From NCBI GenBank assembly GCA_022819985.1, contig JAJEGH010000004.1:62001-126000 (forward strand): DNA of 64,000 bases, in the 5' to 3' direction. The DNA is from Alphaproteobacteria bacterium. GTDB taxonomy: Bacteria > Pseudomonadota > Alphaproteobacteria > Bin65. The notes beneath the pieces are model-generated. The model saw only the letters and a list, made by a program, of their open reading frames with translations. It was not told the DNA's origin and did not search any database. This document shows, piece by piece, positions 17,357-19,556 of the stretch (its first letter is position 1; every line of letters starts with the position of its first letter). The translations under genes and the position numbers were made by a program.

Positions 17357-17635
17357 GGGGCGGCTTCGCTTCGGCCGTCATTTCGACTGGAGCGACGCAA
17401 GCCGCGAAGCGGAGAACCCTTTGCCGCGAAACGGAATACTCGCTCCCCTCTCCATCGCTTCCGCCTGACGGCGGCAGGACCCCTCAGCAGGGCTGGCGGG
17501 GGAAACCGCTGGACGAGCCAGCCGAAGAAAGGGGGCCGCTCCCCCGTTGTGCACTTCGCCAGTAGGGCAGGTTCGGGCGGGAGACTCGCTGAACTACGGG
17601 ACTTTCCCGCCCGGACCCGCTAGAAGAAAAGAACG
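17357..17635. other. Gene-free spacer with REP arm and hairpin
   Basis: I see no gene here. It contains one arm of the CCGTCATTTCGA-type repeat (17376 onward) that is complete at 22723-22882. It also holds a stem of nine perfect base pairs (CGGGCGGGA 17574-17582 with TCCCGCCCG 17605-17613). It marks the change from the redox operon to the repeat-rich island. Confidence 0.5.
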
Positions 17636-17704
17636 CGGCAAGGCTGGGCATCGCTAGGCTCGGCGTGGCTTGACAGGGCCCGGCTAGGCATGGCGTGGCA
17701 AGGA
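17636..17704. repeat. Array of 5-bp repeats, block A (NGGCN)
   Basis: Read in steps of five from 17636, almost every pentamer matches NGGCN: CGGCA, AGGCT, GGGCA, TCGCT, AGGCT, CGGCG, TGGCT, then after one mismatch GGGCC, CGGCT, AGGCA, TGGCG, TGGCA. Two pentamers deviate (TCGCT and TGACA). The phase is held throughout, so this is not just G+C bias. Block B at 17866-18050 carries the reverse-complementary pattern. Confidence 0.8.
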
Positions 17705-17711
17705 AAAAACA

Positions 17712-17846
17712 CAGGACAAGAGCGGTCGCCGGGGACCACGTCGGCATCGCGACGGAGAGACCGTGGCTAAACTGGAGCCGACCGGCAGATTGAATGGCGA
17801 TATAGTCTAATCAAAGGACGAGCCGAACTAGGGCCAGGACAAGAGC
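17712..17846. repeat. 12-bp direct repeat between the pentamer arrays
   Basis: CAGGACAAGAGC occurs at 17712-17723, eight bases after block A, and again at 17835-17846, twenty bases before block B. The 111 bases between them contain an A+T-richer stretch (GATATAGTCTAATCAAAGG) that could include a promoter, and no convincing reading frame. Confidence 0.6.
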
Positions 17847-17865
17847 CGCCAAGCCGCGACTGTCC

Positions 17866-18050
17866 CAGCCATGCTCAACCTTGCCGCACCACGCCATGTA
17901 TGCCTTGCAGAGCTTGGCCGTGCTGCGTTTTCCCTGCCATGCCGAACCGCACCACGCCTAGCACTGCCGAGCTCTGCCATGCCGAGCCTTGCCGCGCCAA
18001 GCCGCGCCTGACTCTGCCTTGCCATGCCACGACGATGCGCAGCATGCCAC
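17866..18050. repeat. Array of 5-bp repeats, block B (GCCNN)
   Basis: About 37 pentamers with a GCC core, clearest from 17936 on: GCCAT, GCCGA, then GCCTA, GCCGA, GCCAT, GCCGA, GCCTT, GCCGC, GCCAA, GCCGC, GCCTG, GCCTT, GCCAT, GCCAC. The phase slips once or twice before 17936. It is the inverted counterpart of block A; CCTTGCC...ACGCCATG at 17879-17899 is complementary to the end of block A apart from one extra pentamer. Reading frames through it encode only Cys/Ala/Pro/Met repeats and are not genes. Confidence 0.8.
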
Positions 18051-18170
18051 AGGTGAATTCGAAGCACCAATCAAACCCTGAATTTGTGTCTAAAATGATT
18101 CTTGATGGTCGGGTTGTGTTCCCCATATCCTTTGAACGGCAAAAGCAGCGTTCTGTGAAAACTAGAACTC

Positions 18171-18698
18171 GTGACCCAACGTCGTTATTCCACGAAGGCA
18201 TACTTGCAAGCAAAAGAGCAGGCGTTCGCCCGAACCGGCGGGTGTTGCGTCGGATGCGGGGAGCCGGCCGAGGAAGCGCACCATTGGGCGAAGAAATATC
18301 CGCCCATCGGTAGCGAGACGGTCGATGATCTGGTCCCAGTCTGCAAGGTTTGCCACTACTGGTTCAACTCTTGGCGCCGCACCATTCGGTTCGGCTTCGC
18401 GCGCGAAGCCAACGCACGCAAGGCAATCGATGAGGTAATCGCTCAATGCTATTCGCAGTCGAACTCGTCGGGGACAGCCCCATCATCATGCACTCAGCCG
18501 CCGGACTCGATACCGCCTCGGACATCAGCCGAGAAATCAATGAGATCGCGAAGAAGCGCGGAACGAACCGAACCGAGGCCGACGAACTTCGGCTCAGGGA
18601 ATTGGAATGCCAACGATCCCTCTGGCTCGAAAACGGAAAGCCAACCGTTCCGCACTCGGCGCTACGGTCGTGCATCGAAACCGGAGCCAGAAAGCTGA
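18171..18698 (+). CDS. HNH-like zinc-finger protein (3' half doubtful)
   Basis: The first 90 residues contain an HNH-type zinc scaffold: CVGCG, then EEAHHWA, then LVPVCKVCHYW, with the His-His pair typical of HNH nucleases. The remaining 85 residues are Ser/Arg/Pro-rich, resemble no domain, and overlap the next gene by 253 bases in another frame. The two alternative frames both stop just before the next ATG (TGA 18431, TAA 18436), so a frameshift may have extended an ORF that once ended there. Start is GTG 18171 with no ribosome site. Base use is A+T-richer than the chromosome, suggesting transfer. Confidence 0.5.
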   Translation: MTQRRYSTKAYLQAKEQAFARTGGCCVGCGEPAEEAHHWAKKYPPIGSETVDDLVPVCKVCHYWFNSWRRTIRFGFAREANARKAIDEVIAQCYSQSNSSGTAPSSCTQPPDSIPPRTSAEKSMRSRRSAERTEPRPTNFGSGNWNANDPSGSKTESQPFRTRRYGRASKPEPES

Positions 18699-19045
18699 AG
18701 CAAGGACCCCAAGTCCGCGAGGGCATGGTCGTGCAGGAAACGGTGTTCGTCTTCGATAGCGAACGATACGGTAAATCCGTTAAGGAATGGGGTGAGAATT
18801 GCCAATTCACAGTGCCGGTTGTCGTTCAGCGAAACCGGATTCTGCGTACGCGGGCCAAGTTCGATCAACCGTGGTCGGTGAATGCGATCATCTACGGTGA
18901 CGACGAGTTGGTTGACAGCACCAAGCTGAAGACTTGGCTGGATATCGCTGGCCAACGGATTGGCCTGGGCGATTGGCGACCGGAAAAATCCGGCGCATAT
19001 GGCCGATTTTCGGTGAATTCTGTCGAGATCACCGATGTGCAATGA
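18446..19045 (+). CDS. Phage-type hypothetical protein with GLGDWRP motif
   Basis: This 199-residue protein resembles a family of phage and prophage hypotheticals: N-terminal VELVGDSPIIMHSA, a charged helix, VPHSALRSCIETGARKL (about 70-90), RTRAKF, and the diagnostic C-terminal IGLGDWRPEKSGAYGRF (about 172-190). The function of the family is unknown to me. Several positions recall RAMP/Cas7-like proteins (an IPGSSLRG-like segment and a Gly-rich loop), but that is only a motif impression. GAGG lies ten bases before ATG 18446. Lower G+C and isolation point to a horizontally acquired remnant. It lies between the pentamer arrays and the 10-bp repeat clusters. Confidence 0.75.
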   Translation: MLFAVELVGDSPIIMHSAAGLDTASDISREINEIAKKRGTNRTEADELRLRELECQRSLWLENGKPTVPHSALRSCIETGARKLKQGPQVREGMVVQETVFVFDSERYGKSVKEWGENCQFTVPVVVQRNRILRTRAKFDQPWSVNAIIYGDDELVDSTKLKTWLDIAGQRIGLGDWRPEKSGAYGRFSVNSVEITDVQ

Positions 19046-19148
19046 CGGTCTGTCCCGCGATCCTTCCCTTGCTCGCCGCTTGACGGAAGCGATGAGAACA
19101 TTACATAAACTTTGAATTTGGCAGCACCGGCGGGCTGCGACGGCGAAT

Positions 19149-19168
19149 CCTGACATTCCATGACACAT
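19149..19168. repeat. Phased 10-bp repeat cluster 1
   Basis: Two adjacent decamers, CCTGACATTC and CATGACACAT, match the consensus CATGACANNN of the two larger clusters downstream. It lies about 100 bp after the phage-type gene. Confidence 0.5.
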
Positions 19169-19193
19169 CCGAAGCCTCTCCCTTGTCACCCCG

Positions 19194-19281
19194 GATGGAG
19201 CGAAGCGGAAATCCGGAGTCCAAGGCCGGCCGCAAAGATCGTGCGGGCGACTCTGGGCCCCGGATCGGGGTCCGGGGCGAC
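19194..19281. repeat. REP-type palindrome
   Basis: ACCCCGGATGGAGCGAAGCGGAAATCCGG and a matching CCCCGGATCGGGGTCCGGGG form imperfect inverted arms of the same type as those at 4711-4874. It lies between phased-repeat clusters 1 and 2 in a gene-free spacer (19046-19615). Confidence 0.55.
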
Positions 19282-19313
19282 ACGGTGTTGCGTTCGGTGT
19301 GAGTCCGAAACGC

Positions 19314-19353
19314 CATAACAGATCATGACGAAACCTGACATTTCGTGACATCG
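19314..19353. repeat. Phased 10-bp repeat cluster 2
   Basis: Four decamers follow each other without gaps: CATAACAGAT, CATGACGAAA, CCTGACATTT, CGTGACATCG. The TGAC core is conserved in three of the four at exact 10-bp spacing, i.e. one turn of the helix, which suits side-by-side protein binding. Confidence 0.6.
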
Positions 19354-19516
19354 GTTGCCGTCGCCCCATCCGTCATCCCTGCCGACCGAAGTGGCCGGAA
19401 GTACCCCGGCTCAATCTTGGAAAAACAGAAACGGAATCCGGCGACAGGATTCCTCCGCTCCGCGGTTCTGCGAACCGCTCCGGTCGGAATGAAGGAAAGG
19501 GCGAAGAAAAGAGCGC

Positions 19517-19556
19517 CATGACAAAACATGACGGATCATGACATACCATGACATCC
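19517..19556. repeat. Phased 10-bp repeat cluster 3
   Basis: Four perfect CATGAC cores at exact 10-bp spacing: CATGACAAAA, CATGACGGAT, CATGACATAC, CATGACATCC. This is the best-preserved cluster. It ends 60 bp downstream of the P450 gene on the other strand, so it is not in that gene's promoter. Confidence 0.75.

What the first reader, a model, noticed from the sequence alone, without database searches (positions are those of the whole stretch)
17636..18050. Inverted pair of helix-independent 5-bp repeat arrays upstream of a phage-like gene pair
Block A (17636-17704) follows an NGGCN pattern in strict 5-bp phase; block B (17866-18050) shows the reverse-complementary GCCNN pattern over about 37 units. 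Only the core is fixed while the other two positions vary, which is neither a simple microsatellite nor a known CRISPR or iteron layout. The end of A is complementary to the start of B, so a transcript would fold into a long hairpin around a 160-base centre. It immediately precedes an HNH-like and a phage-type gene. This may be a regulatory RNA, an origin or a packaging/recombination signal of an undescribed element.
Basis: partly seen in the sequence, partly recalled or inferred. Interest (0 to 1): 0.62.

Follow-up and report, generated by a model that had tools for sequence, protein, structure and literature searches.

The report
Chromosomal VIPR guide-RNA locus with HNH nuclease
The odd five-letter repeats are guide-RNA genes of a recently reported CRISPR-like system (VIPR), placed beside the gene for the protein that uses them and a gene for a likely DNA-cutting partner; the system is known, but this copy lies in a bacterial chromosome and its guides point in two directions.

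Summary
GGCNN units in 5-bp phase occupy 17637-17699 (+). The reverse-complement arrays occupy about 18030-17863 (-). Both exceed shuffled sequence. The B count of 37 is too high: there are about 20 + 7 units, in two phases. The hairpin is only what any two inverted GGC arrays give.

The arrays are guide-RNA (vrRNA) genes of a VIPR system, described in a 2026 preprint (PMC13142463): a RAMP protein, Vipr, uses RNAs of alternating GGY/NN to bind double-stranded DNA. The ORF at 18446-19045 is a Vipr: homologous to the solved SUSP1 Vipr (36pp, E 3e-11 alone, 7.5e-47 by profile), with a model (pLDDT 93) matching only Cas7/Csm3/gRAMP proteins in the top 50. Arrays and Vipr go together both ways: 85 of 120 array-bearing viral loci have Vipr; 57 of 72 Vipr loci have a same-strand array.

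The HNH gene overlapping the vipr start is conserved in relatives. Its closest solved relative is the HNH domain of Cas5-HNH Cascade, so target cutting is the likely output (inferred).

Unusual here: arrays lie upstream, on both strands, none downstream. The roughly 1.7-kb cassette is missing at the same site in congeners. No target was found.

The parts
17637..17703 (+). vrRNA array A: 13 variable dinucleotides (AA TG AT TA TC GT TT AG CC TA AT GT AA) between GGC cores (CGC and GAC once each), ending AAGGA
   Evidence: length within the 9-16 repeats given for vrRNAs in PMC13142463
17704..17765 (+). possible 3' tail of vrRNA A; only weakly structured
   Evidence: fold z -1.7
17931..18030 (-). 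vrRNA array B1: 20 five-base units read 18030 to 17931, 16 with GGY, ending AGGGA
   Evidence: longer than 16 units, so possibly two overlapping vrRNAs
17863..17897 (-). array B2: 7 units (5 GGY), out of phase with B1, ending TGGGA
17820..17880 (-). strong hairpin at the 3' end of the B arrays, likely vrRNA tail
   Evidence: z -3.9; tails of relatives L140, L147, L134 give z -3.6 to -5.1
17712..17723 (+). first copy of the 12-bp direct repeat CAGGACAAGAGC (second copy 17835-17846)
18171..18698 (+). HNH-type protein, probable VIPR accessory (vap) nuclease; HNH part 18171-18470; frame runs about 250 nt into vipr
18446..19045 (+). vipr gene, 199 aa, RAMP fold, phrog_4652
17365..19076 (.). extent of the cassette relative to congener G185, where 47 bp stand in its place

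Best explanation
This is a chromosomal VIPR system. The arrays are transcribed into small guide RNAs (vrRNAs) in which a fixed GGY alternates with a variable NN. Several Vipr (RAMP) subunits coat each RNA, presumably one per five-base unit. The NN pairs together select double-stranded DNA of the form NNxNNx, leaving one target base unread between pairs (rule taken from PMC13142463). The HNH protein made from the overlapping upstream gene probably joins the complex and nicks or cuts the bound DNA, as the HNH domain does in Cas5-HNH Cascade, so the locus most likely acts as targeted defence against phages or other mobile DNA. Shown here: array statistics, Vipr homology and RAMP fold, linkage of arrays and Vipr, linkage of HNH and Vipr in relatives, absence of the cassette in congeners. 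Inferred: transcription, RNP assembly, cutting, and the defence role.
For: Vipr identity: phmmer of the window protein alone against all PDB sequences gives one hit, SUSP1 Vipr 36pp_D, E 3.4e-11; the family profile gives E 7.5e-47. Fold: model pLDDT 93.4; Foldseek and VIA top 50 are all CRISPR Cas7/Csm3/gRAMP-type effector chains, Z up to 12.2. Linkage: 85 of 120 array-selected viral loci carry the family, 83 on the array strand, median gap 24 nt. Of loci selected by Vipr alone, 36 of 50 viral and 21 of 22 genomic have a same-strand GGY array within 2 kb, 0 of 72 an opposite one. In low-GC felixounaviruses the same gene has GGT-rich arrays, so GC content is not the cause. HNH: upstream and overlapping in 11 of 19 close relatives, from Chloroflexota and Alphaproteobacteria; best PDB sequence and fold match is Cas5-HNH Cascade, which cuts DNA (PMC10910872). 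Code: among 571 unique arrays and 3.6 Mb of fetched DNA, the only full-length match outside low-complexity sequence and the arrays themselves is under the 1-nt skip rule, 9 of 9 NN with the skipped base at the wobble position.
Against: No target of arrays A or B was found in the own genome, and viral matches are at chance level. The B arrays contain degenerate units and a phase break, and A lacks a strong tail hairpin, so some guides may be dead. Arrays upstream and on both strands were not seen in any of the 72 loci fetched by Vipr alone. No sigma-70-like promoter was found. The HNH motif has D where classical HNH proteins have N.
Confidence: 0.92

Rival explanations
1. The locus is a decaying VIPR remnant: vipr and HNH are still open, but the arrays have been inverted, moved and partly mutated and no longer make working guides.
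For: Array layout differs from all close relatives; B has a phase break and degenerate units; no targets found; congener G185 has only 47 bp with a 5-unit GCCNN stretch at the same site (a few in a thousand by chance from the genome-wide rate).
Against: Vipr and HNH frames are intact; degenerate units occur at a similar rate (57 of 492) and are of similar kind (AGY, CGC, GAC, TGC) in relatives' arrays; the B end keeps a strong hairpin.
Confidence: 0.3
2. The Vipr-HNH complex represses transcription only, and HNH serves as a structural or DNA-binding part.
For: The characterised VIPRs (type II) repress rather than cut (PMC13142463). HNH has an N to D substitution; the Foldseek neighbours include the T4 endonuclease VII N62D mutant.
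Against: Cas5-HNH, which cuts DNA, has D at the aligned position too; the H residues and the zinc cysteines are conserved in 11 or 12 of 12.
Confidence: 0.3
3. The inverted arrays form a hairpin or double-stranded RNA with a regulatory, origin or packaging role.
For: z -3.9 against dinucleotide shuffles.
Against: Excess vanishes when cores are kept; relatives have no inverted arrays; no phage genes around.
Confidence: 0.03

Closest known systems
VIPR systems (PMC13142463; SUSP1 Vipr, PDB 36pp)
   Same: Vipr/RAMP protein of about 20 kDa, GGY/NN arrays of similar length beside it, an accessory gene, found in phages and in chromosomes
   Different: Accessory is HNH rather than SUSP1 vap1; arrays upstream and on both strands; single cassette in a chromosome; type not assigned because the supplement could not be read
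Cas5-HNH Cascade (type I-E variant, PMC10910872; PDB 8yb6, 8zp7)
   Same: A RAMP-based RNA-guided complex coupled to an HNH domain; this HNH is the closest solved relative by sequence and fold
   Different: There the HNH is fused to Cas5 and the guide is a contiguous crRNA; no CRISPR array or other cas gene here
Type III Csm3 / Cas7
   Same: RAMP fold, Z about 12 over about 158 residues
   Different: About 10% identity, no CRISPR array

Membership tests
VIPR | Vipr protein: homologue of SUSP1 Vipr with RAMP fold and G-loop | tested here: met
   C-terminal IGLGDWRP..GRF conserved
VIPR | GGY/NN tandem arrays of 9-16 units next to vipr | tested here: met
   A: 13 NN; B1: 20 units (longer), B2: 7 (shorter)
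VIPR | Arrays in intergenic DNA next to vipr; same strand as vipr in the loci examined here | tested here: inconclusive
   A yes, B no; loci fetched by Vipr always same strand
VIPR | Conserved structured 3' tail on the vrRNA | tested here: inconclusive
   B ends in a strong hairpin, A does not; covariation not tested
VIPR | Accessory vap gene acting on DNA | tested here: met
   HNH gene conserved next to vipr in 11 of 19 close relatives; its activity not tested
VIPR | vrRNA transcribed and bound by Vipr | not testable with these tools
   needs RNA sequencing and pull-down
VIPR | 1-nt skip targets in mobile elements | tested here: inconclusive
   none for window arrays; rule supported for another fetched locus
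CRISPR-Cas class 1 | CRISPR array and cas operon beside the RAMP gene | tested here: not met
   no Rfam match, direct repeats are the 5-bp arrays, CATGAC repeats and short pairs, neighbours DsbD, redoxin, P450, no PADLOC match for the two proteins
Prophage | surrounding phage genes | tested here: not met
   flanks are chromosomal genes in the same order in congeners

The most novel reading that the evidence does not exclude
A host-owned, HNH-armed VIPR with convergent vrRNA arrays on both strands, in which Vipr guides an HNH nuclease (of the kind that arms Cas5-HNH Cascade) to cut DNA under the gapped NNxNN code; its Vipr clade is shared by Chloroflexota, Binatota and Alphaproteobacteria.
Probability: 0.35. 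Interest if true: 0.65.

Novelty: new member of a known kind. Interest (0 to 1): 0.5.

Why it matters
VIPR is proposed as the ancestor of CRISPR effectors and was described only in 2026. This locus adds a compact chromosomal example that pairs Vipr with an HNH protein resembling the HNH of Cas5-HNH Cascade, so it makes a direct test possible of whether a RAMP with a gapped guide can direct DNA cutting. It also gives a congener set with and without the cassette, useful for asking how such loci move and decay.

Tried and rejected
Pfam had no model for Vipr and Rfam none for the arrays or spacers. PADLOC gave nothing. Targets of A: none in the own genome up to 3 mismatches; two viral contigs share 9 of 13 NN but the other four all fail, and the seed search expects about that many by chance. 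Target of B1: one contig with 10 consecutive NN, again about what the 9-NN seed gives by chance. Special complementarity of A and B rejected by core-preserving shuffles. The overlapping HNH/vipr frame was considered as a second coding layer, but its conserved stop seems to come from vipr's own KLK codons (read by eye), so it is not evidence. The tree of close relatives left the window protein's place open, so no donor is named.

Full report
What is in the sequence. Block A (17637-17703, +) reads GGC AA GGC TG GGC AT CGC TA GGC TC GGC GT GGC TT GAC AG GGC CC GGC TA GGC AT GGC GT GGC AA GGA. Block B read on the minus strand starts at 18030 with 20 units (16 GGY) and, after a phase break, has 7 more (17897-17863). 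The 5-bp excess is far beyond dinucleotide shuffles in both blocks, and block B holds the only perfect 6-unit GGC matches in the assembly. The claim of about 37 units in B is too high. The fold of the whole region (z -3.9) is explained by the inverted cores.

What travels with such arrays. Within each locus the arrays lie almost purely on one strand, also in contigs of 39-45% GC. In those low-GC contigs the arrays are intergenic and flank a gene related to the window ORF 18446-19045. An HMM seeded with that ORF and one such relative finds the family in 85 of the 120 loci, 83 on the array strand, at a median gap of 24 nt; in 18 of the 35 others the array is near the end of the stretch held. The reverse test uses loci fetched by the protein alone: 36 of 50 viral and 21 of 22 genomic loci have a same-strand GGY array within 2 kb and none has an opposite-strand one. 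For scale, 126 of 50,697 phage records hold a protein similar to the window's. In felixounaviruses the gene has GGT-rich arrays.

Identity. A paper search found PMC13142463, a 2026 preprint describing VIPR systems: Vipr, a RAMP protein proposed to be older than CRISPR, and vrRNAs of 9-16 YNNGG repeats with a 3' tail, reading double-stranded DNA by NN pairs with one skipped base. The window protein was then tested independently. Against all PDB sequences it has one match, SUSP1 Vipr 36pp (E 3.4e-11; family profile 7.5e-47). Its AlphaFold model (pLDDT 93.4) matches CRISPR Cas7/Csm3/gRAMP-type chains throughout the top 50. It is a Vipr.

The partner gene. Upstream and overlapping vipr lies an HNH protein. 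Close relatives of this Vipr (50-62% identity) occur in Chloroflexota, Binatota and Alphaproteobacteria bins; 11 of 19 have the HNH gene in the same place, and arrays follow vipr on its own strand. The HNH family keeps the CxxC, HHW, DDL and CxxCH motifs. Its best PDB sequence match is the HNH domain of Cas5-HNH Cascade (E 4e-5), which is also the top fold match (E 7e-3) and cuts target DNA (PMC10910872; PMC11822464). Both have D at the usual N position. The preprint states that its types III-V encode enzymes such as nucleases or helicases and that types III and V, the nuclease-bearing ones, look like host defence; its main text does not mention HNH, and the supplement could not be read, so the type is open.

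What is unusual. In the window the arrays are upstream of HNH, on both strands and converging, and nothing follows vipr. Of the loci fetched by Vipr none shows this; among array-selected viral loci two have the array opposite to Vipr. B, read on the minus strand, ends in a strong hairpin like the tails of relatives; A does not.

The cassette. Flanking genes are DsbD, redoxin and P450. In congeners G279 and G745 the matching flanks are only about 100 bp apart, and in G185 the stretch 17365-19076 is replaced by 47 bp that hold five GCCNN units. Such 5-unit matches number about 6-28 per genome in five of the six congeners and none in the sixth, so the coincidence has a chance of a few in a thousand: suggestive of a remnant, not proof. 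Whether the other congeners never had the cassette or lost it is open.

The code. All 571 unique arrays in the fetched loci were tested against 3.6 Mb of fetched DNA (both strands) with skips of 0-3 bases. Outside low-complexity sequence and the arrays themselves, the only full match was at skip 1: a 9-NN vrRNA in L209 against a gene near Vipr in L214, L216 and L217, with the skipped base at the third codon position. The expected number is about 0.03 (own estimate), so this is modest independent support for the published rule. No target was found for A or B.

Mechanism. Shown: homology, fold, linkage. Inferred from the preprint and from Cas5-HNH: transcription of A and B, coating by Vipr, gapped recognition of double-stranded DNA, recruitment of HNH and cutting.

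Noticed in passing
L123 4665-6450, L124 5560-5760, L128 1640-1790 and 2880-3240: In the actinobacteriophages LittleE, Trine and MakoManhole the GGC arrays are separated by minihelices resembling a tRNA acceptor stem plus T-arm (GGTTCGANTCC loop); three of four tested fold as such, though not significantly better than shuffles. They could be processed by tRNA enzymes; the preprint's main text mentions hammerhead ribozymes but not tRNA.
   Followed up: partly
L139 2936-3931, L141 2939-3931: In Boseongicola relatives of this Vipr the upstream gene looks by eye like a tyrosine recombinase instead of HNH, hinting at mobility.
   Followed up: no
window 19144-19554: CATGACNNNN-like repeats at about 10-bp spacing downstream of the cassette, also in congener G185 (L245); unrelated to the GGC arrays.
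   Followed up: no
L209 array at 1088 and L214/L216/L217: A vrRNA with a perfect 9-NN, 1-nt-skip match in a 195-aa ORF near the Vipr gene of other genomes, skipped base at the wobble position.
   Followed up: partly
window 18446-18698: The HNH frame stays open about 250 nt into vipr in the window and in most relatives; probably a by-product of vipr codons.
   Followed up: partly
window 17712-17723 and 17835-17846: Exact 12-bp direct repeat CAGGACAAGAGC bordering the centre between the arrays (0.24 matches expected in the window with one mismatch).
   Followed up: no
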